Shown: positions 24-32,059 of the stretch, piece after piece
Position numbering within the stretch: position 1 is the first letter of the stretch
Layout of the letters: each line of letters starts with the position of its first letter
Source of the DNA: Candidatus Moraniibacteriota bacterium
GTDB lineage: Bacteria > Patescibacteriota > Minisyncoccia > Moranbacterales > GCA-2747515
Length of the DNA: 37,469 nt
Reading direction: 5' to 3'
NCBI GenBank assembly: GCA_947311515.1
Contig: CAMZLB010000026.1
Coordinates: 1 to 37,469, forward strand
The notes under the pieces: model-generated
Database searches by the model: none
What the model was told of the DNA's origin: nothing
What the model saw: the letters and a program-made list of their open reading frames with translations, nothing else
Program-made: the position numbers and the translations under genes

Positions 24-3000
24 GTGGCAAAATTCACGCCATCAAAAAAACGAGCTGAACATTATCAAAGTGAAGATGCTCTGGAAAAAGAGTTTATTAA
101 ACAACTCCAAGCTCAAGCTTATGAATATTTAAAAATCACTAAGGAAGAAAATTTAATTTTAAATCTAAGAAATCAATTAGAAAAATTAAATGATTATCAA
201 TTTACAGATAAAGAGTGGAAACATTTTTTTGATTTAGAACTGGCTAATTCAAATCAAGGTATTGTTGAAAAAACAACTACTATCCAAGAAGATCATATTA
301 AAATATTAAAGCGTGACAATGGCACAAGTAAAAATATTTATTTGATAGATAAAAAGAATATTCATAACAATAGCTTGCAAGTAATAAATCAATACGCAAC
401 AGGAGACGGACAGCGGGCTAATCGCTATGATGTGACAATTCTTGTAAATGGTCTGCCTTTAGTTCATATTGAGCTTAAAAAAAGAGGCGTAGCAATACAA
501 GAAGCATTTAATCAAATTAATCGCTATCAAAGAGAAAGTTTTTGGGCATCAAGTGGACTTTTTGAATATGTACAATTGTTTGTTATTTCAAATGGAACTC
601 ATACAAAATATTATAGCAATACAACTCGTTTTTCTCATATCAAAGAACAGAAAAATGGGGCAAAGAAGAAAGGTAAAAAATCAAGCAATAGTTTTGAATT
701 TACTAGCTGGTGGGCGGATTATACCAATAGGCCTATTACCGACTTGGTAGACTTTGCAAAAACATTTTTTGCCAAACATTCATTACTCAACATTCTTACA
801 AAATATTGTGTTTTTACAGCCGATAAACAGCTTTTAGTAATGAGACCCTACCAGATAGTAGCGACTGAAAAAATTATTAACAAAATTGAAGTAAGTGGTA
901 ACTATAAAAAATATGGAACCATCGAAGCAGGTGGATATATTTGGCATACAACAGGATCAGGAAAAACTTTGACGAGTTTTAAAGCTGCTCAATTAGCAAG
1001 CCAATTAGATGATGTTGATAAGGTTTTATTTGTTGTTGATAGAAAAGATTTGGATTATCAGACAATGAAAGAATATGATAAATTTGAAAAAGGTTCTGCA
1101 AATAGCAATACTAGTACCGCTAAATTACAAAAACAACTAGAAAATACAAATGCTCGTATAATTATTACCACAATTCAAAAATTAGACAGATTTATCAAAA
1201 AAAATAAAGATCATAGTATTTTCGATGGAGAAATTGTATTGATATTTGATGAGTGTCATCGCTCACAATTTGGTGATATGCATACCGCTATTACTAAATC
1301 ATTTAAAAAATATTATCTCTTTGGATTTACTGGAACTCCTATTTTTGCGATAAACTCTTCTTCTGGAACTCATCCAGACCTTAGGACAACAGAGCAAGCC
1401 TTTGGAGACAAACTGCATACCTATACTATCGTTGATGCCATTGCAGATAAAAATGTTTTGCCGTTTAAGGTAGATTATGTTTCTACGATGAAAGAGGCAG
1501 AGGATATTGAGAATAAAGAAATTAATGATATTAATAGAAAGAAAGTACTTTTTGATCCAGAAAGAATTAGCGAAATTGTGAAATATATCCGTGAACATTT
1601 TAATCAAAAAACAAAAAGAAATAGTTTCTATAAAGTTAAAGAACGTAGAGTTGCTGGATTTAATTCTCTATTTGCCGTCTCTTCTATCGATATGGCAAAA
1701 CTGTATTATGCAGAGTTTCAAAATCAAATGAAAGATTTGCCAAGTGATAAACAACTAAAAATAGCTACTATTTTTAGTTATGGGGCAAATGAAGAAGAGT
1801 CTGAAGATGGAATTATTGATGAAAACCCTGAAAGCACTGACGATCTTGATGTAAATTCAAGAGATTTTTTGGAAAATTCTATCAAAGATTATAATAAAAT
1901 GTTTGGGACATCATATGACACTTCATCAGATAAATTTCAAAATTATTATAAAGATGTAAGCGAAAGGGTAAAAAATAGAGAATTAGACCTGCTGATCGTT
2001 GTTAATATGTTTTTAACAGGGTTTGATGCTACAACTCTTAATACTTTATGGGTTGATAAAAGCTTGAGATTACACGGACTAATTCAAGCTTTTTCTAGGA
2101 CAAATCGTATTTTGAATAGCATTAAGACTTTTGGAAATATTATATGTTTTCGTAATTTAGAAAAAAGAACAAATGAAGCTATTGCTCTTTTTGGAGATAA
2201 AGAAGCAAGTGGTATTGTTTTGCTAAAATCTTATGAGGAATATTATAACGGCTACAAAGATGGTGATAAAGATATACGAGGATATAAAAACCTTGTTGAA
2301 GAGTTACAAAATAAATTTCCTATTGGAGAGAGAATATTGGGCGAACAGAAACAAAAAGATTTTATTAAGCTTTATAGTAGAATTTTACGAGTGCGTAATA
2401 TTTTGACTACTTTTGATAAATTTGCAGGAAACGAAATACTTACCGACCGAGATGTTCAAGATTATCATAGTTTATATATAGATTTATATAATAAATTTAG
2501 AAAAAGTGAAGATTCTGAAAAAGAAAATATTAATGATGATATTGTTTTTGAAATGGAACTTATTAAACAAATTGAGATTAATATTGATTATATTTTAACA
2601 CTTGTTAAAAAATACCATGAAGACCATACTAAAAATAAAGAAATTTTAATTGATATTAACAAAGCAATAGATTCAAGTGTTGAATTAAGAAATAAAAAAG
2701 ATCTTATCGAGCAATTTATTGCATCTCTTGAGATACGATCTGTAGTAAATGATGATTGGCAAAAATTTGTTGAGAAAAAGAAAATTGAAGAACTTGAGCG
2801 TATTATTGAGGAAGAAAATCTTAATAAAGAAAGGGCATATAATTTTATAGAAAATGCTTTTCGTGATGGTTCTGTAAATAGTACTGGTGGGGCTATTACT
2901 AGAGTTTTACCACCAATCTCAATGTTTACGAGAGATAATAAACGAGGTAAAAAACGAGAAGTTGTACTTAAAAAATTTAGAAGATTTTTTGAGAGATTCT

Positions 3001-3026
3001 TTGATATTTCTAAGCGTAGTTTTTGA
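24..3026 (+). CDS. hsdR: Type I restriction-modification system restriction subunit (HsdR), probably 5'-truncated by the window edge
   Basis: PD-(D/E)xK region 'YDVTILVNGLPLVHIELKKR', Walker A 'HTTGSGKT', 'DECHRSQFG' box, 'GFTGTPIF'. Frame stays open from base 3 to the GTG at 24 (QNPQSTV-VAKFTPSKKRAEHYQSEDALEKEF), so the true start is probably upstream of the window. Confidence 0.96.
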   Translation: MAKFTPSKKRAEHYQSEDALEKEFIKQLQAQAYEYLKITKEENLILNLRNQLEKLNDYQFTDKEWKHFFDLELANSNQGIVEKTTTIQEDHIKILKRDNGTSKNIYLIDKKNIHNNSLQVINQYATGDGQRANRYDVTILVNGLPLVHIELKKRGVAIQEAFNQINRYQRESFWASSGLFEYVQLFVISNGTHTKYYSNTTRFSHIKEQKNGAKKKGKKSSNSFEFTSWWADYTNRPITDLVDFAKTFFAKHSLLNILTKYCVFTADKQLLVMRPYQIVATEKIINKIEVSGNYKKYGTIEAGGYIWHTTGSGKTLTSFKAAQLASQLDDVDKVLFVVDRKDLDYQTMKEYDKFEKGSANSNTSTAKLQKQLENTNARIIITTIQKLDRFIKKNKDHSIFDGEIVLIFDECHRSQFGDMHTAITKSFKKYYLFGFTGTPIFAINSSSGTHPDLRTTEQAFGDKLHTYTIVDAIADKNVLPFKVDYVSTMKEAEDIENKEINDINRKKVLFDPERISEIVKYIREHFNQKTKRNSFYKVKERRVAGFNSLFAVSSIDMAKLYYAEFQNQMKDLPSDKQLKIATIFSYGANEEESEDGIIDENPESTDDLDVNSRDFLENSIKDYNKMFGTSYDTSSDKFQNYYKDVSERVKNRELDLLIVVNMFLTGFDATTLNTLWVDKSLRLHGLIQAFSRTNRILNSIKTFGNIICFRNLEKRTNEAIALFGDKEASGIVLLKSYEEYYNGYKDGDKDIRGYKNLVEELQNKFPIGERILGEQKQKDFIKLYSRILRVRNILTTFDKFAGNEILTDRDVQDYHSLYIDLYNKFRKSEDSEKENINDDIVFEMELIKQIEINIDYILTLVKKYHEDHTKNKEILIDINKAIDSSVELRNKKDLIEQFIASLEIRSVVNDDWQKFVEKKKIEELERIIEEENLNKERAYNFIENAFRDGSVNSTGGAITRVLPPISMFTRDNKRGKKREVVLKKFRRFFERFFDISKRSF

Positions 3027-4444: not shown

Positions 4445-4990
4445 TTATACAATGACACATATTAGATAATCTATTTCTCTAATGTTTACCTTATAGTTAA
4501 CGTTAGAATAGGTTACATTAGTCTTATTTACAAAATGTATGCTTTTAAGGTCATTAAAAGTAAGGTTTAGTTTTTTTATTAAAGCTTCTTTAGTTGTCCA
4601 AATTTTATAAAAATTTAACCAGTTTTTTTTACCAAAAATTTTGTATTCTTTAGTAGAAAATATGTTCAATAATTCTTTAGAACGAGGTCTTATGTGTTCA
4701 ATATCTATTCCAATAGGTTCAGTGGAAATAATTGCACTAAGATAGATAGTATTTGAGATAGTTTTATGAGATACTGACCAGTACAAATTTTTTAAAGGTT
4801 TAGGAGCTCCATTTTTAAAAGTTTCCAAAAATTTAACATTTAAGCAAGTGGACTTTTCAATTAATTTTATGATTAGATATCTACTAGCTATGCTTTCATC
4901 TTTTAGCTTTTTTATATAAATATTGCCAAAAAAGTTTTTAGCTTCTTGTAATAAATTTTTATCACATTCTTGTATTGTATAACTAAACAT
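4445..4990 (-). CDS. 4'-phosphopantetheinyl transferase (Sfp/AcpT-like)
   Basis: PPTase motifs 'PIGIDIEHIRPR' and 'FYKIWTTKEALIKKL'. Start overlaps the upstream gene stop (ATGTTTAG, 8-nt overlap). Confidence 0.85.
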   Translation of the reverse strand: MFSYTIQECDKNLLQEAKNFFGNIYIKKLKDESIASRYLIIKLIEKSTCLNVKFLETFKNGAPKPLKNLYWSVSHKTISNTIYLSAIISTEPIGIDIEHIRPRSKELLNIFSTKEYKIFGKKNWLNFYKIWTTKEALIKKLNLTFNDLKSIHFVNKTNVTYSNVNYKVNIREIDYLICVIV

Positions 4991-7643
4991 TCAAAAGATT
5001 TTTTAAGGCCTTATAATTTGTTTTGCCAGTACCTAATGTTGGTATTGTTTTAATTATTTGGATATCATTAATTTTTACTATATTGGAGATACCTAACTTT
5101 TGTAAGTGAGCATTAATCTCATCGATAGTTAAATCTTTTATAGAAAAACATGTTATAATAGGTTTATTATTCACTTCTTTAGCTTCTATAGCTAATGCAA
5201 TTTCATCTTCATTTCCATATTTTTCAAGAAGGATAGACTCAATCATGGGTAAGCTTATCATTTCACCTCCAATTTTTACAAATCTTTTTAGTCGTCCTGT
5301 TATAAATAAATAGTTATCATTGTCTAAGTAGCCTAAATCTCCAGTTTTATAGTAGTTATTCCCATTTATTATTCTAAAGGGGGATTCTATATCTTTGTCT
5401 ATATAGCCTTCAAAAACGCTATCCCCACTTACATATATCATACCTTCTTCCAATGCTAAGCATTTTTTCTTAGTGCTTAGATTTTCGATATAAATTTTTA
5501 ATGTAGGAATCACCTTTCCGACACTTTGAAATTTAGGTTTACCATTAGGAGTTATGGATACTACTGGAGAACATTCTGTTATTCCATAGCCTTCTAAAAT
5601 TTCACCATGTGGAACTTTCTTATTAAATGAATAAATTAAATCTTTTGGACAAGCCTCTGCTCCAGTCATAGTAACTCTTAGTGAGGATAAATCACTTTCT
5701 TTTGAGTTTTTTAGTATTATTTTTAGAAAGGTTGGTGCAGTTGGTAGTAGTGTAACGTTGCAATGTTTTATTATATTTTGTATAGCTAGGCCATCAGTTG
5801 GATTTGGTGAATAAACGGCTTTTATATCAGATATAAGAGGTAAAATAATAGTTGTGGTAAATCCAAAACTATGAAATGGAGGCAGTATGCCAAGTATTAT
5901 ATCATCACTTTTAGCTGAAAATATAGATAAAGTTCCATGTAAATCTTGTATTATATTTTGGTGACTAAGTGAAACTGCTTTTGGATTAGATTCACTTCCA
6001 GATGTGAACAATATAACAGCTGTTTTTGGTATAGATATATTTTTTAGTAATTTTGGAACTTTTGATATAAATAATCCTTTTAGTTTTGTGAAAAGGGTTA
6101 ATTTTTCAATTTCATCCTCTAAGAATATAAATTTATTATGTAGCGAATTAGGTATGGAATCTTGTATTCTTTCAAAAAAGACCTTGGCTGTAAGTATTTT
6201 TTCTATACCACTTATATTTACACAGTTAATTAGTGATTTTTCTCCAACAGTCCAATTAAGCATAACTGGAATTTTACCACTTAAATAAGTTGCAGATATA
6301 AGTATGCTCGTGCTTTGTAGGGATGGAAGCATTATTCCAATTTTTTCATTTTTACTAACTTTTTTAATTATTAAACTAGATATTATAGATTTTAGTAAAA
6401 ATTCTTTGTATGTAGTTGCGCCTTTTATCTTGTCGAATGTAAACAATCCATTTTTTTTGTAAAAGTTTTCTATAAATAAATCACGAATATTAGTATTTGT
6501 ATTGTTGATGGAGACTCTTTTAATTTTATTTTTGGAAATATTTTCAAATAAACATTTAGGAAGAGTGTTTTCTGAGTAGTTTTTGCCTTCTGCTAAAATA
6601 CAAATATCTCTAACGGTTTTTAATTTTTTGAAATCAGGAGTAGAAGTATGTTTATATTTTTTTTGAATAATACTTACTAATTCAGCAAGTTGTATAGAAT
6701 CAAATCTTAAATCAACAGCTAGGCTTTTATCAAGATTAAGTGAATTTATATTTAGATTTTCATGAATTTTGAGGATTTGTTCATAAACAAAATTAATTGT
6801 ATTTTTTTCAATATAAACGTTGGAATAAGTAGTATTAGTTGATAAATTATCATCTATGGAACCAACTATAAAATTAGGTAATTTCTTTTTTAATTTAGGA
6901 ACAAAAAAGAAATGTTTGATATAAGTGACCTTTTCTGTACCGTTTATATTATAAAATGATTCTAAAAAATTGTTTAAAGATTGAATTGATTCTTTTGCTT
7001 TTATCTTTGAATTAGCTGTTATATCTAAAAATTCTAAGGAAACGTTTCGTTTTGGTACAAAAAATATAAAATTCGCAAAAATATAAAAAACACAACGAAT
7101 AAATGTGGTTATTAAATTTACACTTGTACCAGACCAAGCTCTACTCCAAATGCTGCCCCATAGACCCTCTATTCTAACGCCTATGACACGTGTATTTTTT
7201 GGCATTTTTTTTATTAGATAGTGAGCGGATTGTTTTCCGAGAATGACTTCATGCCCCTGACCTTGAGTTTGACCAGAAGGATATAATACAATACTTTTTC
7301 CATGTTTTAGATGTTTCAATATCTCACTATGCATCTTTTTTAATGCATTTTGTGCATCTTTGACTTGTGTAAAGTCAATTACAGGGATTGAATCTATAGA
7401 CTTAAGGATGTTACCTATTATGGGCATTTTAAGTACGTAGTCAGCTACTATAGGAGAGGCCTTAGAAGTTTCATAAATTTGACTAAATAGTATTTGAGGA
7501 TCGACAAAGGCTTGATGATTAGGTAATATCAAAAGAGGCTTGTCAGATTTAAGGATTTCAATGTTTTTTAAGATAACATTGTATCTTCTATTCAAAAAAA
7601 ATCTGTAAGTTTTTGTAAATAGACTTAGTAATACATCTTTCAT
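4983..7643 (-). CDS. Fusion protein: PlsC-type acyltransferase, acyl carrier protein domain, AMP-forming acyl-ACP/acyl-CoA synthetase (Aas-like)
   Basis: N-terminal 'LPNHQAFVD' (NHx4D) plus 'LYPSGQTQGQG' and 'RIEGLWGSIWSRAWSG'; ACP-like 'LAVDLRFDSIQLAELVSII' with candidate Ser316 (codon 6696-6698); adenylation motifs 'AVILFTSGSESNPKAVSLSH', 'EGYGITECSP', 'YKTGDLGYLD', 'GRLKRFVKIGGEMIS'. Confidence 0.9.
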   Translation of the reverse strand: MKDVLLSLFTKTYRFFLNRRYNVILKNIEILKSDKPLLILPNHQAFVDPQILFSQIYETSKASPIVADYVLKMPIIGNILKSIDSIPVIDFTQVKDAQNALKKMHSEILKHLKHGKSIVLYPSGQTQGQGHEVILGKQSAHYLIKKMPKNTRVIGVRIEGLWGSIWSRAWSGTSVNLITTFIRCVFYIFANFIFFVPKRNVSLEFLDITANSKIKAKESIQSLNNFLESFYNINGTEKVTYIKHFFFVPKLKKKLPNFIVGSIDDNLSTNTTYSNVYIEKNTINFVYEQILKIHENLNINSLNLDKSLAVDLRFDSIQLAELVSIIQKKYKHTSTPDFKKLKTVRDICILAEGKNYSENTLPKCLFENISKNKIKRVSINNTNTNIRDLFIENFYKKNGLFTFDKIKGATTYKEFLLKSIISSLIIKKVSKNEKIGIMLPSLQSTSILISATYLSGKIPVMLNWTVGEKSLINCVNISGIEKILTAKVFFERIQDSIPNSLHNKFIFLEDEIEKLTLFTKLKGLFISKVPKLLKNISIPKTAVILFTSGSESNPKAVSLSHQNIIQDLHGTLSIFSAKSDDIILGILPPFHSFGFTTTIILPLISDIKAVYSPNPTDGLAIQNIIKHCNVTLLPTAPTFLKIILKNSKESDLSSLRVTMTGAEACPKDLIYSFNKKVPHGEILEGYGITECSPVVSITPNGKPKFQSVGKVIPTLKIYIENLSTKKKCLALEEGMIYVSGDSVFEGYIDKDIESPFRIINGNNYYKTGDLGYLDNDNYLFITGRLKRFVKIGGEMISLPMIESILLEKYGNEDEIALAIEAKEVNNKPIITCFSIKDLTIDEINAHLQKLGISNIVKINDIQIIKTIPTLGTGKTNYKALKNLLNV

Positions 7644-8605
7644 TATAGTAAATTATATTTTTTAAATAAATCTTTCATATGTTTATTTGCATCCCTTGTT
7701 ACGTTTATTAACTTTTTTTGACTTGTTTCAATGGGAAATACATCATTTCCAGACCAGGCTATTAAATAGGGAATATTTTTATAGTTATCTCTTAGGTCTT
7801 TGAGCGAAGTATCGAATCTATCTTGCCATTTAAGTATGTCGGGCTGTAAATGTTTCATATCACGTACCATCCATTTTGCAATAATCCTGTGAATTGAAAG
7901 CATTCTTTCTTTTTCTGTTTTATTTGCTACTATAAGTATGTGTGTAGGATTAATTTTCTCAATAACATCTTTTTGAGGGAATGGCATAGATAATCCACCA
8001 TCTATATATTCTACTCCATTAATTTCTATATGATTAGAGGCTCCAACAATTGCAAATGATGCTTCTATCCCATCAACCACATCATTCAATTCTTTTAAAT
8101 TTAAGAGCTTTCTTTCTCCAGTTTTTTTACATGTTGTAACTGCAATTGTATTTACTCTTGAATTTTTGAGCTTTTTTTGATTTATTGATTTTTTGCCATA
8201 TCTTAAGATATTGGCCATATGATGAATATCTGCGAGATGACCACCTTTTATAGCTCTTATCACTGAAACTAGAGGTAAGTGCACACACTCTTCATGATAT
8301 ATACTAGTACCAAGTTCTGATTGGTGAGAAGCCGCATAGGCGATAATTCCTGCTCCAGTAGAGATACCAAGCATATTATCAAATGAATCTATAAGTCCAA
8401 GTTCCTCAAGTGCGGTTGTGCGACCACCTCCATCAGCTCCTCTCATTATTCCAGATAATACAATTAAGAGTGGTCTGATATGATTAGAGTCCATACTTTT
8501 GTCGAGTAAGTGCTTTTTTTCAATTAGAGCACGAAGGACTTTTTCAGGACAGCCCTCAAAAAACATTCCACTCTCTGTTTTTAGTATATGATTTGCCTTA
8601 GACAT
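7643..8605 (-). CDS. Patatin-like phospholipase
   Basis: Glycine-rich 'IMRGADGGGRTTALEELGL', nucleophile elbow 'GISTG', 'DGG' (YIDGGLSMPFP). Stop overlaps the next start as TAATG. Confidence 0.85.
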   Translation of the reverse strand: MSKANHILKTESGMFFEGCPEKVLRALIEKKHLLDKSMDSNHIRPLLIVLSGIMRGADGGGRTTALEELGLIDSFDNMLGISTGAGIIAYAASHQSELGTSIYHEECVHLPLVSVIRAIKGGHLADIHHMANILRYGKKSINQKKLKNSRVNTIAVTTCKKTGERKLLNLKELNDVVDGIEASFAIVGASNHIEINGVEYIDGGLSMPFPQKDVIEKINPTHILIVANKTEKERMLSIHRIIAKWMVRDMKHLQPDILKWQDRFDTSLKDLRDNYKNIPYLIAWSGNDVFPIETSQKKLINVTRDANKHMKDLFKKYNLL

Positions 8606-9010: not shown

Positions 9011-9200
9011 AAAATCGATATTGAATTATCTATGATACTATTCATAGATTTTTCTGTAATTTATATGATAGACTTCTTTTTAAAATTTTATAAAGTATAA
9101 TATTTTGTAATAGAACAAGGATAGTTTGATAGTTTTTTGAGTGGTTTATTTTTAAAGATAGAGGATTAATTATATGATAGGTCTAGGGAAGCATATTGTG

Positions 9201-9275
9201 TGCACTCGGCAGGACTCGAACCTGCGACTTCCTGGGCCGAAACCAGACGCTCTAATCCAACTGAGCTACGAGTGC
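9201..9275 (-). tRNA. tRNA-Arg (anticodon UCG)
   Basis: Reverse complement GCACTCG TAGCTCAGTTGGATTAGAGCG TCTGG TTTCGGC CCAGG AAGTC GCAGGTTCGAATCCTGC CGAGTGC A folds as a cloverleaf: 7-bp acceptor, GGTTCGAATCC T-arm, anticodon TCG. CCA not encoded. Confidence 0.95.
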
Positions 9276-9380: not shown

Positions 9381-10574
9381 CTACTTTTTAAGTATATCAT
9401 TTATAATATTTATATCGGGGCAGCTGAAGTCATTATGTGGTGAATAAAAACTTTTTCTAGGTCCGTGGCAAGCAGTTTCATCTTTAGGAAGTGGTGTTAT
9501 AAGGGGTAACATAAACCCAATATTTTGTTCAGTTAAGGTTTTGTGTAGGTATTTAAGTGTTTCATGTCTTTTTTTTGTCGGAAATCTTGTGAATGTATTC
9601 ATATCATCACCTATTTCACCATTCCAATCTAAATAAGTTATTACATTGTAAGCTTTACTTTTGTAATCATTATGCCACATGAGTGGCCAACACCAATCTC
9701 CTTTCTTTTTGTGAAACTTTGAGTAACATGGACCGTTTTCAATACTACCATCATCATGGAGTCCTATTCCGCCATCTATAAAATCAAATAATCTCAAATA
9801 ACTTTTTCTAGTTATATCACCAGTCTGTGCACCTATGAATATTTCCATATTTATACTATAGGCGTATTCCCTCATTTCTCTTATTACATTATCGATTTTT
9901 GGGTGATTTTTGTAATCCTCTTCCTGATGTTTAATTTGACCAAATAAAAATACTCGGATCCCACTGTCCATTGCATCTCTAGTTATTTGTCTGAGATATG
10001 ACCTATATTCTTTTTTCTTAAAAGATGGTTTACAAGTATGTTCTCCCCAGAAATTTTTGCTACTTGATCTGCACATATCACTAAAGTTAAAATATCGTTT
10101 TTCATCTCTAAAGTAATAGTCCGATTTTTTATGAATTGCTTCAGCTATGAACATGCTGTACTGTGCATCAATTTTTCCGATTTCTTTAATTTTTTCTCTA
10201 ACTTCTCTGAAGTTTGGAGGGGCTAACCATGTTTCTACTGCTCTGTGAAAGTAATAGCAATTACTATTTTTTGCAATAGGTATATCAATAATTGGTTTAT
10301 TGTATCCAGATAAAAGGCCGTCAGCCACACATCCTTCAGTTTTCATTCTTTCCATATCTGGAGCAGTCCAAGCAAGTTCTAAAGCTTTACTAGGTTTAAC
10401 TAATGACATTTCAATAAGTTTGGGAGTTTTTATAAACGGAGTATTTTCGTCTGATGGTGAGATATCCTTGGAGAAAAGTATTAATCCTATATACAAAAAA
10501 CATAGAAACAGTAAGAGAAAAAAGATTACTTTTAAAAAGGTGATGATAATTTTTTTGAAATCAATTTGTAACAT
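9381..10574 (-). CDS. Membrane-anchored extracytoplasmic protein of unknown function, Cys-rich, possibly TIM-barrel/glycosidase-like
   Basis: N-terminal TM 'IIITFLKVIFFLLLFLCFLYIGLILF' then a ~350-aa domain with eight spaced Cys and barrel-strand-like segments (GIRVFLFGQI, NMEIFIGAQTGD, DFIDGGIG). Family not recognised. Confidence 0.7.
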   Translation of the reverse strand: MLQIDFKKIIITFLKVIFFLLLFLCFLYIGLILFSKDISPSDENTPFIKTPKLIEMSLVKPSKALELAWTAPDMERMKTEGCVADGLLSGYNKPIIDIPIAKNSNCYYFHRAVETWLAPPNFREVREKIKEIGKIDAQYSMFIAEAIHKKSDYYFRDEKRYFNFSDMCRSSSKNFWGEHTCKPSFKKKEYRSYLRQITRDAMDSGIRVFLFGQIKHQEEDYKNHPKIDNVIREMREYAYSINMEIFIGAQTGDITRKSYLRLFDFIDGGIGLHDDGSIENGPCYSKFHKKKGDWCWPLMWHNDYKSKAYNVITYLDWNGEIGDDMNTFTRFPTKKRHETLKYLHKTLTEQNIGFMLPLITPLPKDETACHGPRKSFYSPHNDFSCPDINIINDILKK

Positions 10575-26227: not shown

Positions 26228-29200
26228 ATGATGGGTTTTATGAATAATAAAATAATTTCAGTATTGGTCTTAATTGTAAGTATTACTATTTTATTTTTTG
26301 CGTTATCTACGCAAGCTATTATTAATAAGCAAATTAATTATCAAGGAAAATTATTTAATTCGAATGAACAACCTGTAAATGATGGAGATTATAACATGGA
26401 ATTTAGATTATGTGTAACTTCTGATTGTACAGATGTTTCTGATCCAATTTGGGTAGAGACTAGAACAAATGCAAATAAAGTCTCTGTAAAAACAGGGCTA
26501 TTTTCAGTATTACTTGGAGAAGTTTCTTCTATAGCTACAGTAGATTTTAGTCAAGATTTATGGCTTGGAGTAAATATTGGAGGAATCGGTTCACCGTCTT
26601 GGGATGGGGAAATGATACCACGTAAAAAATTAGGATCTGTAAATGCCTCCATAGTTTCAGCATCACTTAAATCAGATGTTGACGGTAATGAAATTATAGC
26701 AAATTCAGCAAATAACTTACTAGAAATTACTCAGTCAGGTTCTGGGGATATATTCAGAGTAAATGATACTTTGGGTGATGTTTCACCATTCTTGATAGAT
26801 GCAAATGGCAATGTCGGGGTAGGAGATGATACTCCAGATGCTTTACTTGATGTTGCTGGTTCATTTAGACTTGATGGAACTTTTGGGGATAAAGATGGAG
26901 ATGTCGGAGTTTCAGGACAAATTCTTTCTTCAACAGTAAATGGAACTGATTGGGTGGAATTACAAGCGGGAAATGTAGCAGTTTTAGATGCTGGAGGGTA
27001 TTATGATGGAGTTGATGTGGAAGGCGTGCTTCAAAGTTTAGGAAAAAATGCAACGGATAGATGGTCTACAGGACTTGTTACGGGAGGGACTTTAAGTGAT
27101 GCAGGAGGGATTACCATTGATATAACTGCTGGAGAAGGATTTGTAAATAACTCTTCTAATCAGTTGAAAGAAGTTTCGTGGAATGCTATAAATGGAATTT
27201 CAATGACAACTAATGGAGATAACTATGTTTATATTGATTCTTCTGGTTCTGTTCATATTTCAAATACAGAAGAAGATGCAAATGATTATATTTTACTTGG
27301 CTATGTTTATACTATATTGAGTAACACTGATATAGGACTAGTTTCATCGAATCCATATTTAGCAGGAAATTACACAAAGCACAATAATCAATGGTTAGAT
27401 AAAGTAATGGGACCAATGATTGAAAGTGGTAATATTCTTTCTGAACATACTACAGACTTAGAACTTTATACAACTTCTGGAAAAATCTCTTCTAGATTAT
27501 CAGAATACACAACCAATAATACAAGTACAATAACTAAATGGTATAATACTGCTGATTATGGTTGGTATCAAGACTCCTCAGATCCAAATAAAGTAAATCC
27601 AAATAAATACAATGATCCAATTTTAAATCATGGCACAGCTCTGGTTGATATGACTGCTTTGTATTGGAAGAAAGATTTGGTCGTTAGAGGATTGGATGGA
27701 AGTGTTCATTATATCTACGGACAAGAAGAATATGATTCAGAGACAGAAGCAAAAGAGGCAGAATTACCTCCAATTCCTAGTGCAATTTCTAAGGGAGGAG
27801 CGGTGTATATTGCGACTATAGTTTCTCAAGAAGGAGCAACTTCGATTGAGAATAATATTTATGATATTCGCCCAAATATGGATAGAGTTTTTGGTTCGGG
27901 AGTTAGTGGAACAACGGGAACTGCAGCGTATCATGGAGATTTGACTGGTCTTGATGAGGACCATCATTTGCAATATTTACGAACTGATGGAGGAAGAGTT
28001 GTTACAGGTAATATGAGTTTCGAAGGAAGTAGTGTTGATAATTTTGAAACATTATTTTCAATCACAGACCCTACAGCAGACAGAGTTATAACTTTCCCAA
28101 ATCTAACAGGAGAAGTTTCTCTATTGGGTCAAACTATTAGCTCAGCTGAGCTTGAAAATACGATCTCATTGTCAAAATTTATCGATGATACAACTCACAG
28201 ATTAGTGACGGATGTTGAAAAAAATACTTGGAACGCAAAAGAAAATGCAATTACTTCTGGAACTGGATTACAATTTTGGCGAGGAGATAAAACTTGGCAA
28301 ACATTAGACACTTCTGTAGTGCCAGAAAATGGGAATTTGTATTTTACGAATACTAGAGCAGATAACAGAGCAGATAGTAGAATAGCAATTGCATCTATAG
28401 ATGATTTAAATGATGTAAATACTTCTGGAGTATCAAACGGACAAGTTCTTGAATGGAATGGTTCAGATTGGGTCGTAGGTAATAAAACTTCAAATACTGA
28501 CAATCAGGAAATTGAAACTTTTAACTTAGCTAACGGAATTTTGTCATTAGCACTTGAAGATGATGGACAATCTAATCAAACTGTAGATTTTTCAAATTTA
28601 TACACCTTTAATTCACCATTATCACTAGCTTCTAGGACAATATCTTTAAATTATGATGATGATACAATTGGGGTAAATGGAAGTAGTGAAATTTATGTAA
28701 AAGATGATGGAATTGATGATACAAAGATTAATTGGGGAACAGGAGCTAATCAAGTTTCAGCTAATGATATAGTAGTAGAAGATTCTGAGGGTTACTATAC
28801 TCAATCGGATGTAGAAGATATTCTTCAAGATTTAGGGAAGAATGCAACGGATAGATGGTCTACAGGACTTGTTACAGGAGGAGAGTTGACTGATAATGGA
28901 GATAATGACATAAATATTGCAGCTGGGAGTGGTTTTGTAAGTAATTCCGCATATAAGTTAGAATCTGTTTCGTGGTCAGCTATATCTGATGAAAATTTAC
29001 CATATGCAGGGAATAATTTTGTTTACATAGATAGAACGGGTAGTGTGTATATTTCTTCTGTAGAATCAAATATAAATGATTATATATATTTAGGATACGT
29101 TTTTACTATAAGTGGAAATACTGATATCGGGCTAATCTCATCAAATCCATACTATGTTGGGAATTATGCCAATAAAAATAATAAATGGATGAATGCCATT

Positions 29201-32059
29201 GTTGGTACAATGATTGAGGATGGAAATATTGTTTCTGAACATACTACAAATTTACAACTATCTATCAATGGAGGAACTATGTATTCAAGACTTAATGAAT
29301 ATAATTTTTCAGATACTACTAGTTTTATAAAATGGTATAAAAATGGTAATTGGACACAAGACACTTCCAACTTGAACACAGTAAATACTACTCAATACAA
29401 CAGTATGAGTAGCGGATTAGTTAATATGACTAATAATTATTGGAAAAAAGATTTAATACTTAGAACATTAGATGGAAATATACATTATATATATGGACAG
29501 ATAGAATATTCTACGGAAGATGCTGCGAAAAAAGCTCCTATGCCAGTAATACCTATTAATATCACACATGCAGATTCAGCTTATCTTGCAACAATTGTGT
29601 CTCAAAAAGGAGATACAACTATTGCTAATAGATTATATGATGTTCGTCCAAATATGAGTAGAGTCTTTGGATATGGAACTTCAGGTACAACTGGTTCTGT
29701 AGCTGATCACGGAAATTTAACTGGATTGGGAGATGATGATCATACGCAATACTTACTTGGAAGTGGAACTAGAGCTATGACAGGTAATCTAAATCTAGGA
29801 AATAATGCTATTACAAATATTGCAAGTCTAACAATGGCAGGGAGTCTTAAAAATACATCTACTACATCTGCACAATTAAATATAGGATATGATGTTTCAA
29901 ATTATTTTACAACTTCAGTTGCTTCAAATGGATTAGTGACGCTCGATGCTTTTGGAACTGGTGCAGGATTTAATTTTTCTGACAATGTGCAGTTATCAGC
30001 TGGATTATTAGATACTAGTGGGGACATAGGAACTAGTGGTCAAATTTTAAGTAGTACTGCTACTGGAACAAATTGGATTGATACTTTCGCTCCAAATGCT
30101 GGAACATCAAATAATAATACACTTAGATGGAATGGAGCTACATGGGTTGAATCTTCTGTTTTGCAAAATGATGGTACAAATGTTACAGTATCTGGTAATA
30201 TACTAGCAAGTTCTGCAACTTCTGATTTAGGATCTTCTACACAAGGATTTGATAATATTTATTCTGATCTAACACAGGGCTCAGCATTATTTATTGGTGC
30301 AAATGGACTTTTGACAGAAGATAATTCAAATTTCTTTTGGGATGATGGAAATGATAGGCTTGGAATTGGTACAAATTCTTCAGATTATACGTTGGATGTT
30401 GCTGGTGAAGTTGGAATTGATAGACATATATATCACAACGGAGATTCAAATACATATATGGACTTTACTTCGGATCGTTGGCAGCTATTCACAGGAGGGC
30501 AATCAATGATTGATGCACAATATAGTAGTAATGAGGTAACTATTAATGAAGGAGGTACTCAAACTGATTTCCGCATTGAAGGAGGAAATGAAGTTAATCT
30601 TTTGTTTACTGATGGCTCGGAGGATAGGGTTGGAATTGGAACAGATACTCCAAGTCAGATTTTGGATATTGTGGGAAATGTTGAGCTTAATGATTATTTA
30701 TATTTTAGAAATGGAAGTTCTGAGTATCTGAGACATGATAATTCTACTTTTGTGCTTAGTGATGATTTGTTGCCTAGTGGAAATGATACTTTGGACTTAG
30801 GTGCTACAGGAAGTAGATGGCAAGACTTATATTTAGGACCACAGACCTTACATATCGGCTCATCGCTTACAGATGAGGGAACAATAGGATATGATACAAC
30901 AAATAATATTCTATCTATTAATACTGATTCAACCACTAATGGTAATATTGCTTTCAACACAGATGACTTGTTTATAGACACTGTAAATTCAAGAGTGGGG
31001 ATAGGTGACACAACTCCTGATGCAGATCTAGATGTAGCTGGAAGTTTTAGAGTCGATGAAGAGTTCTATGATAAAGATGGAGATTCTGGAACTATGGGGC
31101 AAGTTTTGTCTTCTACTGCTACTGGAACAGACTGGATTACGAACTCAACAAATCCTATTCCGTATATTTCTACGGTAAATAAATATAGAATGTTGCCATC
31201 TACTACAGGCACGTTTACATTGGAAGGGGTAAACTTTACTCCTACAACAGCGGTTTCTATAACTAATCCTACATTTACGGGAACAGTAGATTCGGTAAAT
31301 GTACTTTCTCCGACAGAAATGGAAGTAACAGTAACTAGTGGTGCCACAGAAGAATTACATGATATTGTATTATCTAATTCAGGAGTATTAAATACTGCAT
31401 GGACTGGAAATGGAGTGGATTTGTTTGAAGTAGCCACTTCAACTTGGAAGGATTTACGTTCTGGAGGAGATTCATTTACCGATGGAAATGGAGCTGGAAA
31501 TGATATTAGGTACAGATCTGGTATGAGTATGAGTAGAGATGCTAATGGTATGTATTTCTCAGGAGCATCTCCTTGGTCATCTTGGGTTAAATTTGAAAGT
31601 TTAGGATGGACTAGAGGGACAAATCAAACAGTCCAATGGATATTTACTAATCCAGACGGAGCTATGATGATTGGTATAGGTTCAGATGCAACAAACGAGA
31701 CTAGCACAGCTCAATATGCAGAAGCAGAAGTAGAAGCTTATTTTAGTAGCTCTACGAATATGTGGGGTCTATATGGAAATAATGGAACGGTAGGAAGTGC
31801 AGGAAGTCAAAATTATTCAACAGCTATTTCATCAGGAGGGGTTTATAAAATTAAATTTGAAAATGACGGTGATGCAGGAGATACAGTTACGCTCTACCAG
31901 ATTCCATCAGCAGCTCCTGGTGATTGGGATAATGAAACAAATGTTATAATAACATTTAGCATTGGAGGGAGTCTTAATCCAGATGAAACAAATATCATGC
32001 CATTTATCATCCCTAGAAATGGTGGCACACAGAGATTTATTGCAGTTAAAGTTGAATAA
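26228..32059 (+). CDS. Giant (1943 aa) secreted phage-tail-fibre-like surface protein/adhesin with internal duplication
   Basis: N-terminal TM/signal then 'INKQINYQGKLFNSNEQPVNDGDYNMEFRL'; two ~350-aa copies beginning 'GYYxxxDVExxLQxLGKNATDRWSTGLVTGG' and ending 'HGxLTGLxxDxHxQYL'; several 'RVGIGxxTPxxxLDVxG' motifs; 'WRGDKTWQTLDTSVVPENGNLYFTNTRADNRADSRI'; TIG-like 'FTLEGVNFTPTTAVSITNPTFTG'. Confidence 0.88.
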   Translation: MMGFMNNKIISVLVLIVSITILFFALSTQAIINKQINYQGKLFNSNEQPVNDGDYNMEFRLCVTSDCTDVSDPIWVETRTNANKVSVKTGLFSVLLGEVSSIATVDFSQDLWLGVNIGGIGSPSWDGEMIPRKKLGSVNASIVSASLKSDVDGNEIIANSANNLLEITQSGSGDIFRVNDTLGDVSPFLIDANGNVGVGDDTPDALLDVAGSFRLDGTFGDKDGDVGVSGQILSSTVNGTDWVELQAGNVAVLDAGGYYDGVDVEGVLQSLGKNATDRWSTGLVTGGTLSDAGGITIDITAGEGFVNNSSNQLKEVSWNAINGISMTTNGDNYVYIDSSGSVHISNTEEDANDYILLGYVYTILSNTDIGLVSSNPYLAGNYTKHNNQWLDKVMGPMIESGNILSEHTTDLELYTTSGKISSRLSEYTTNNTSTITKWYNTADYGWYQDSSDPNKVNPNKYNDPILNHGTALVDMTALYWKKDLVVRGLDGSVHYIYGQEEYDSETEAKEAELPPIPSAISKGGAVYIATIVSQEGATSIENNIYDIRPNMDRVFGSGVSGTTGTAAYHGDLTGLDEDHHLQYLRTDGGRVVTGNMSFEGSSVDNFETLFSITDPTADRVITFPNLTGEVSLLGQTISSAELENTISLSKFIDDTTHRLVTDVEKNTWNAKENAITSGTGLQFWRGDKTWQTLDTSVVPENGNLYFTNTRADNRADSRIAIASIDDLNDVNTSGVSNGQVLEWNGSDWVVGNKTSNTDNQEIETFNLANGILSLALEDDGQSNQTVDFSNLYTFNSPLSLASRTISLNYDDDTIGVNGSSEIYVKDDGIDDTKINWGTGANQVSANDIVVEDSEGYYTQSDVEDILQDLGKNATDRWSTGLVTGGELTDNGDNDINIAAGSGFVSNSAYKLESVSWSAISDENLPYAGNNFVYIDRTGSVYISSVESNINDYIYLGYVFTISGNTDIGLISSNPYYVGNYANKNNKWMNAIVGTMIEDGNIVSEHTTNLQLSINGGTMYSRLNEYNFSDTTSFIKWYKNGNWTQDTSNLNTVNTTQYNSMSSGLVNMTNNYWKKDLILRTLDGNIHYIYGQIEYSTEDAAKKAPMPVIPINITHADSAYLATIVSQKGDTTIANRLYDVRPNMSRVFGYGTSGTTGSVADHGNLTGLGDDDHTQYLLGSGTRAMTGNLNLGNNAITNIASLTMAGSLKNTSTTSAQLNIGYDVSNYFTTSVASNGLVTLDAFGTGAGFNFSDNVQLSAGLLDTSGDIGTSGQILSSTATGTNWIDTFAPNAGTSNNNTLRWNGATWVESSVLQNDGTNVTVSGNILASSATSDLGSSTQGFDNIYSDLTQGSALFIGANGLLTEDNSNFFWDDGNDRLGIGTNSSDYTLDVAGEVGIDRHIYHNGDSNTYMDFTSDRWQLFTGGQSMIDAQYSSNEVTINEGGTQTDFRIEGGNEVNLLFTDGSEDRVGIGTDTPSQILDIVGNVELNDYLYFRNGSSEYLRHDNSTFVLSDDLLPSGNDTLDLGATGSRWQDLYLGPQTLHIGSSLTDEGTIGYDTTNNILSINTDSTTNGNIAFNTDDLFIDTVNSRVGIGDTTPDADLDVAGSFRVDEEFYDKDGDSGTMGQVLSSTATGTDWITNSTNPIPYISTVNKYRMLPSTTGTFTLEGVNFTPTTAVSITNPTFTGTVDSVNVLSPTEMEVTVTSGATEELHDIVLSNSGVLNTAWTGNGVDLFEVATSTWKDLRSGGDSFTDGNGAGNDIRYRSGMSMSRDANGMYFSGASPWSSWVKFESLGWTRGTNQTVQWIFTNPDGAMMIGIGSDATNETSTAQYAEAEVEAYFSSSTNMWGLYGNNGTVGSAGSQNYSTAISSGGVYKIKFENDGDAGDTVTLYQIPSAAPGDWDNETNVIITFSIGGSLNPDETNIMPFIIPRNGGTQRFIAVKVE
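26979..27990 (+). repeat. Internal coding duplication, copy 1
   Basis: Encodes VLDAGGYYDGVDVEGVLQSLGKNATDRWSTGLVTGG...YHGDLTGLDEDHHLQYLRTDG. A 35-nt run (AATGCAACGGATAGATGGTCTACAGGACTTGTTAC) is identical in copy 2. Confidence 0.85.
28768..29770 (+). repeat. Internal coding duplication, copy 2
   Basis: Encodes VVEDSEGYYTQSDVEDILQDLGKNATDRWSTGLVTGG...DHGNLTGLGDDDHTQYLLGSG, colinear with copy 1. Confidence 0.85.

What the first reader, a model, noticed from the sequence alone, without database searches (positions are those of the whole stretch)
4445..8605. Candidate self-contained fatty-acid salvage / phospholipid-remodelling operon
Seen: three minus-strand genes with overlapping junctions (TAATG and ATGTTTAG) encode a patatin-like phospholipase, a PlsC-ACP-AMP-ligase fusion, and a phosphopantetheinyl transferase. 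Known: patatins release acyl chains, AMP-ligases load fatty acids onto ACP or CoA, PPTases activate ACP, PlsC-type enzymes acylate lysolipids. Inferred: one transcript could encode a closed cycle, releasing acyl chains from foreign or own lipids, loading them onto a cis ACP and re-esterifying. That would suit an organism lacking de novo fatty-acid synthesis.
Basis: partly seen in the sequence, partly recalled or inferred. Interest (0 to 1): 0.72.

Follow-up and report, generated by a model that had tools for sequence, protein, structure and literature searches.

The report
Self-sufficient lysolipid reacylation operon in CPR
A tiny-genome bacterium that has no detectable genes for making fatty acids or phospholipids carries, in one compact operon absent from every close relative searched, the parts needed to recycle scavenged lipids: a lipase, a three-domain enzyme that activates a fatty acid on its own built-in carrier and attaches it to a lysolipid, and the enzyme that switches the carrier on.

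Summary
Window 4445-8605 (-) has three overlapping genes: a patatin, an 886-aa PlsC-ACP-AMP-ligase and an Sfp-type PPTase, with catalytic motifs intact. The second partly succeeds: the fusion is absent from 141 relatives, patatin and PPTase orthologues from 112, and patatin linkage is seen nowhere else. A code-25 CPR contig, however, carries the fusion with a PPTase homologue directly behind it. Full-length fusions occur in Bacteroidota (45%), Chlamydiota and Planctomycetota; some in Bacteroidota sit beside LplT-like MFS transporters. The protein reads as E. coli Aas (also Chlamydia CT775+CT776) with the ACP built in. Best explanation: a horizontally acquired, ACP-in-cis lysophospholipid reacylation module for lipids taken from another organism. 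Fatty-acid loading and the PPTase step are well supported by homology; the acceptor and the patatin's role are inferred. New variant of a known kind; the closed cycle is plausible but unproven.

The parts
7643..8605 (-). patatin-like phospholipase, 320 aa, no evident signal peptide or transmembrane segment (by eye); catalytic dyad Ser82/Asp202, oxyanion DGGGR58-62
   Evidence: Pfam PF01734 41.3 bits, 2.6e-10; 20% identical to E. coli YjjU over 211 aa, 7e-8; motifs read from the sequence
4983..7643 (-). 886-aa PlsC-ACP-AMP-ligase fusion (acyl-ACP synthetase / acyltransferase with built-in ACP)
6951..7643 (-). PlsC-type acyltransferase domain, aa 1-231, HX4D at His43/Asp48; motif III YPSG instead of FPEG
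   Evidence: PF01553 39.8 bits; alignment with relatives and with Aas; model
6588..6821 (-). ACP domain, aa about 275-352, phosphopantetheine site Ser316 (codon 6698-6696)
   Evidence: PF00550 22.7 bits; Asp315-Ser316 invariant; helix 316-329 in the model
4989..6488 (-). AMP-forming acyl-ACP ligase domain, aa 386-885, catalytic Lys874
   Evidence: PF00501 177.4 bits; best named models are acyl-ACP/Aas-type; acyl-ACP synthetase structures 8i8d, 8i35, 8hsy among Foldseek hits
4445..4990 (-). Sfp-type 4'-phosphopantetheinyl transferase, 181 aa, GIDIE (94-98) and WTTKEA (131-136); the only PPTase found in the genome
   Evidence: PF01648 41.8 bits; Sfp 1qr0 2.8e-4; whole-genome search
9200..9275 (-). 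tRNA-Arg(TCG) directly upstream of the operon; no second copy of its 3' end in the window, so integration at this tRNA is not shown
9381..10574 (-). 397-aa gene of unknown function conserved in the lineage (70% identity in the same genus; the neighbour-gene query matched 90 of 113 genomes); anchors the contig to this lineage

Best explanation
This is a horizontally acquired lysophospholipid reacylation (lipid salvage) operon that works like E. coli Aas but carries its own ACP and PPTase. (1) The Sfp-type PPTase puts a phosphopantetheine arm on Ser316 of the fusion (inferred from homology and linkage; it is the only PPTase and this the only ACP found in the genome). (2) The ligase domain adenylates a fatty acid with ATP and transfers it to the cis ACP (supported by homology). 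(3) The PlsC-type domain moves the acyl chain onto a lysophospholipid taken from another organism, giving a bilayer-forming diacyl lipid (mechanism by homology; acceptor inferred, because no glycerol-3-phosphate acylation or headgroup genes were found that could feed or use phosphatidic acid). (4) The patatin supplies fatty acid and lysolipid by deacylating scavenged phospholipids (inferred from operon position only).
For: Intact motifs and three-domain architecture. Nearest named families are acyl-ACP--phospholipid O-acyltransferase (410 bits), long-chain fatty acid--ACP ligase (351) and Aas (258), although below their full-length cut-offs. Direct alignment to Aas in both enzymatic parts, with the ACP lying between them. 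In Bacteroidota the fusion can sit beside an MFS gene that is a distant LplT homologue, E 1e-11 to 1e-14, the E. coli LplT-Aas pairing; LplT/Aas reacylate lysophospholipids (PMC11416262), and CT775/CT776 use acyl-ACP to acylate lysophospholipids (PMC5693948). In G000 the fusion is the only PF00550 hit and the only PF01553 hit, and the operon PPTase the only PF01648 hit; no PF00109, PF01066 or PF02660; no FabH, FabD, FabZ, AccA, PlsX, PlsY, CdsA or PgsA by BLAST while the UvrC control was found. An independent code-25 CPR contig has the fusion followed 23 nt later by a PPTase homologue. CPR cells have acyl-glycerol lipids rich in lysolipids without complete lipid pathways (PMC7242380).
Against: No LplT-like transporter was found in G000, so lysolipid entry is unexplained. 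PlsC motif III has YPSG for FPEG, which may mean a different acceptor. Patatin linkage is unique to this genome, and its fold could not be modelled (pLDDT 33). The genome is a 96%-complete draft of 71 contigs, so each absence has an error of a few percent. CoA supply for the PPTase was not tested. No expression or biochemical data.
Confidence: 0.68

Rival explanations
1. The fusion feeds a non-membrane product: the ACP-bound acyl chain goes to an amino acid, sugar or protein (a signalling or antagonistic acyl conjugate), not to a lysophospholipid.
For: Four relatives of the same order hold an ACP + PPTase + PlsC-family cluster with ThiF and, in places, a FeeM N-acyl amino acid synthase and an ABC/HlyD exporter. 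PlsC motif III is atypical.
Against: No FeeM, exporter or biosynthetic gene beside this operon. Homologues in Bacteroidota sit beside LplT-like transporters. The nearest named families are phospholipid acyltransferases.
Confidence: 0.12
2. Detoxification or repair: the cell only mends its own membrane or removes harmful free fatty acids and lysolipids released by host or phage phospholipases; the patatin is a housekeeping lipase.
For: LplT-Aas protects E. coli against phospholipase attack (PMC11416262). Relatives without the operon survive, so it is accessory.
Against: This is the same chemistry as the best explanation and differs only in purpose. The patatin gene overlaps the fusion gene, which suggests joint translation.
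Confidence: 0.12
3. The contig belongs to another organism or is a chimera, so the genome-wide inference (no FAS) does not apply to the operon.
For: The operon lies 4.4 kb from the contig end, next to a type I restriction gene; the fusion is unknown in relatives.
Against: The adjacent 397-aa gene is a lineage gene, 70% identical in the same genus. Codon usage of the trio is about as close to other window genes (0.61) and to G001 genes (0.60) as single window genes are to each other, and further from the Bacteroidota homologue (1.01). Contamination estimate 0.09%. A second, code-25 CPR lineage has the fusion.
Confidence: 0.05
4. The operon is decaying or recently acquired and non-functional, with no stable role.
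For: Present in one genome only within the lineage.
Against: All motifs are intact and the frames open over 4.2 kb with tight overlaps. The fusion branch is long (0.86), yet residues invariant in the family are kept.
Confidence: 0.03

Closest known systems
Aas-LplT lysophospholipid remodelling system of E. coli (PMC11416262)
   Same: PlsC-type acyltransferase plus acyl-ACP synthetase in one protein; homology over both parts (28% over each aligned stretch); acyl-ACP as donor
   Different: The ACP is inserted between the two domains instead of supplied by fatty-acid synthesis; own PPTase in the operon; patatin in place of LplT; no LplT-like gene found in the genome
Chlamydia CT775 (lysophospholipid acyltransferase) and CT776/AasC (acyl-ACP synthase) (PMC5693948)
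   Same: Host fatty acid activated on ACP and esterified to lysophospholipid in a host-dependent bacterium; a long-chain fatty acid--ACP ligase model is the second best NCBIfam hit
   Different: Separate proteins using a stand-alone ACP in a genome with full fatty-acid and phospholipid synthesis
Uncharacterised PlsC-ACP-ligase fusions of Bacteroidota, Chlamydiota, Planctomycetota (loci L002-L080)
   Same: Same three-domain order and length, up to 45% identity
   Different: No PPTase homologue detected in the neighbouring ORFs of these loci by a model built here; no patatin seen there by sequence comparison; these phyla normally have AcpS and FAS (general knowledge)
Code-25 CPR contigs L033 and L036
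   Same: Full-length fusion (37-39% identity); L033 has a PPTase homologue directly downstream
   Different: TGA read as Gly; no patatin; no PPTase seen beside the L036 copy
YjjU-type patatins
   Same: GxSxG/DGG dyad, 20% identity to E. coli YjjU
   Different: Function of YjjU itself is only predicted; no solved relative found

Membership tests
Aas-type bifunctional acyltransferase/acyl-ACP synthetase | PlsC-type domain with HX4D followed by AMP-forming acyl-ACP ligase in one chain | tested here: met
Aas-type bifunctional acyltransferase/acyl-ACP synthetase | PlsC motif III FPEG | tested here: not met
   YPSG here; Ser, Ala or Gln in the aligned relatives; FPEG in E. coli Aas
Aas-type bifunctional acyltransferase/acyl-ACP synthetase | score above the curated equivalog cut-off (PRK08043 886 bits; PRK08633 1221 bits) | tested here: not met
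   258 and 410 bits
Aas-type bifunctional acyltransferase/acyl-ACP synthetase | linkage to or fusion with LplT | tested here: not met
   no LplT-like neighbour, none found in G000; seen for Bacteroidota homologues L002, L004, L009
Aas-type bifunctional acyltransferase/acyl-ACP synthetase | acylates lysophospholipid from acyl-ACP | not testable with these tools
   needs enzyme assay
Trifunctional PlsC-ACP-ligase family (Bacteroidota/Chlamydiota type) | full-length co-linear homology with conserved Asp315-Ser316 and ligase motifs | tested here: met
   69-sequence tree, alignment A1
Sfp-type PPTase | (V/I)G(I/V)D and (F/W)(S/C/T)xKE(A/S) motifs | tested here: met
   GIDIE, WTTKEA; Pfam PF01648; Sfp match
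Sfp-type PPTase | activates the cis ACP | not testable with these tools
   needs assay
Patatin-like phospholipase | GxSxG nucleophile, DGG/A catalytic Asp, glycine-rich oxyanion loop | tested here: met
   DGGGR, GISTG, DGG; PF01734 above cut-off
Patatin-like phospholipase | phospholipase A activity and fold | tested here: inconclusive
   single-sequence model pLDDT 33; activity not testable here

The most novel reading that the evidence does not exclude
A CPR bacterium that cannot make fatty acids or phospholipids builds or remodels its membrane by reacylating host-derived lysolipids with a self-contained acyl relay (ligase, ACP and acyltransferase in one chain plus its own PPTase and lipase). 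That would be a concrete enzymatic route for lipid acquisition in a group whose lipid source is unknown.
Probability: 0.5. Interest if true: 0.75.

Novelty: new variant of a known kind. Interest (0 to 1): 0.55.

Why it matters
How CPR bacteria obtain membrane lipids is an open question; a study of their lipids found no enzymes that make or need ACP in the CPR genomes it examined (PMC7242380). Here is a genome in which the only ACP, the only PPTase and the only PlsC-family enzyme found sit in one 4.2-kb operon with a lipase. That makes lysolipid reacylation directly testable in vitro and explains how an acyl-ACP reaction can run without fatty-acid synthesis. The recurrence of fusion plus PPTase in a distant code-25 CPR contig suggests that this solution arose or spread more than once.

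Tried and rejected
A tRNA-Arg integration site: no second copy of the tRNA 3' end in the window, so insertion at the tRNA is not claimed. Conserved trio: rejected. PPTase near Bacteroidota/Chlamydiota fusions: none with a model of seven PPTases. Clean Bacteroidota donor: the window sequence is sister to the Bacteroidota/Chlorobiota clade, not nested in it, and one clade of the three CPR sequences is not rejected (p-AU 0.134), so donor and number of transfers stay open. Patatin relatives in viral contigs: none. Patatin structure: model useless, no fold search made. LplT in the genome: none. A first slice of L036 was out of frame; it was corrected before the tree. The E. coli query carried seven extra residues between FabG and FabZ, which shift later query coordinates by 7 but do not affect the hits. 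FabI was not tested.
Full report
Observation. Three minus-strand genes lie at 8605-4445 in the order patatin, PlsC-ACP-AMP-ligase, PPTase, with overlaps TAATG and ATGTTTAG. All domain calls pass Pfam's curated cut-offs. The ACP call is the weakest (22.7 bits against 20.8), but Asp315-Ser316 is invariant in 14 aligned sequences and in the AlphaFold2 model helix 316-329 starts at that serine, between a PlsC-like part (1-231) and a ligase part (386-885) (mean pLDDT 78). Active-site motifs of all enzymes are intact. The patatin model (single sequence, pLDDT 33) is unusable, so that assignment rests on Pfam, motifs and a 7e-8 match to YjjU.

The organism. G000 is 1.20 Mb in 71 contigs, 96.1% complete, 0.09% contaminated. 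It belongs to a phylum from which 380 genomes were drawn; those listed have 0.5-1.4 Mb. Patescibacteria/CPR is inferred from that; no name is given by the tools. Window genes end in TAA, TAG and TGA, so the standard code applies. The gene next to the operon (9381-10574) is 70% identical in the same genus, and the query that holds it matched 90 of 113 genomes, nearly all in that part, so the contig belongs to the lineage. In the same-genus genome G001 a LytM-type gene and gyrA follow that gene instead of the operon (names by sequence reading). Codon usage of the trio is closer to other window genes and G001 genes than to the Bacteroidota homologue.

First refuter (complete FAS with AcpS). Not found. 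PF00550 hits only the fusion; PF01648 hits only the operon PPTase; PF00109 has no hit although it is found in all 14 control genomes. E. coli FabH, FabD, FabZ, AccA, PlsX, PlsY, CdsA and PgsA find nothing; a FabG-like short-chain dehydrogenase and the UvrC control are found. PF01553 hits only the fusion; PF01066 and PF02660 have none. So neither fatty acids nor phosphatidic acid or its headgroup derivatives appear to be made, and the fusion most plausibly works on preformed lysolipid.

Second refuter (no conserved linkage). Partly met. The fusion is in none of 141 relatives; five genomes matched, G000 itself and four with weak partial matches. It is in none of 379 other genomes of the phylum beyond partial ligase-type matches. 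No patatin or PPTase orthologue is found in 112 relatives; three have weak matches. But a public code-25 contig (L033; 40 in-frame TGA where relatives have Gly) has the full fusion and, 23 nt downstream, a gene matching the operon PPTase (51 bits, 26% identity) that keeps the D-x-E and KE positions, though Pfam does not recognise it. L036, 74% identical to L033 in the fusion, has no PPTase beside it. The patatin linkage is not seen elsewhere.

Relatives and origin. The GTDB contig scan kept 80 loci, mainly Bacteroidota (up to 46%), Chlamydiota and Planctomycetota. In a 69-sequence tree the window sequence is sister to the Bacteroidota/Chlorobiota clade (SH-aLRT 98-99), with L033/L036 just outside; one clade of the three CPR sequences is not rejected (p-AU 0.134). 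Horizontal acquisition is the simplest reading of this distribution; the donor is not known.

Mechanism. The fusion aligns to E. coli Aas over both enzymatic parts (28% over 488 and 159 aa), with the ACP lying between them. Aas makes acyl-ACP from holo-ACP and uses it to acylate lysophospholipids that LplT flips inward (PMC11416262). In Bacteroidota L002, L004 and L009 the fusion is preceded by an MFS gene distantly related to LplT. Chlamydia CT775 and CT776 do the two steps as separate proteins with host fatty acids (PMC5693948). Building the ACP into the enzyme and bringing a PPTase are what a cell without fatty-acid synthesis would need. Shown here: architecture, motifs, sole-copy status, distribution. 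Inferred: PPTase acts on the cis ACP; acceptor is lysophospholipid; patatin supplies substrates. Open: no LplT-like gene, motif III YPSG instead of FPEG, CoA source.

Known context. CPR cells contain acylglycerol lipids, enriched in lysolipids, without complete pathways, and lipid transfer from other organisms has been proposed (PMC7242380). Transfer of an acpP gene and a lysophospholipase gene to Patescibacteria has been reported (PMC12455944), and Saccharibacteria induce host lipid droplets (PMC10939385). The literature searches made here found no description of this operon or of the trifunctional protein; the library does not hold most subscription papers.

Verdict. A real and coherent candidate lipid-salvage operon.

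Noticed in passing
L221 (G054:C1:400000-415000), L224 (G021), L225 (G104), L226 (G088): Four relatives of the same order share a different cluster: PPTase and PlsC-family acyltransferase with stand-alone ACP, ThiF, ABC/HlyD/MacB-type exporter genes and, in L221 and its homologues, a FeeM-type N-acyl amino acid synthase. This looks like acyl amino acid synthesis and export in genomes where mostly no ketosynthase was found.
   Followed up: partly
L220 (G054:C1:20000-35000): A PKS-like cluster in a 1-Mb CPR genome: ketosynthase 689 aa, AT-ACP-KR-DH 1147 aa, PPTase and an AMP ligase.
   Followed up: partly
L033 and L036: Unnamed public contigs that use TGA as Gly (code 25) and carry the PlsC-ACP-ligase fusion.
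   Followed up: partly
L032, L034, L037, L038: In some Bacteroidales the fusion appears as two neighbouring ORFs, about 275 + 530 aa, matching its two halves.
   Followed up: no
window 9381-10574: 397-aa membrane-anchored gene without a Pfam or NCBIfam match, conserved through most of the order at 40-70% identity.
   Followed up: no
window 24-3026: Type I restriction HsdR gene at the contig end, near the operon; its partner subunits would lie off the contig.
   Followed up: no
window 26228-32059: 1943-aa protein with weak tail-fibre-like matches, followed by small secreted-looking genes.
   Followed up: no
L041, L047, L061, L067 (Chlamydiota): The fusion gene is followed directly, at times overlapping, by a gene of about 470 aa; the one tested (L041) is cysteinyl-tRNA synthetase.
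   Followed up: no
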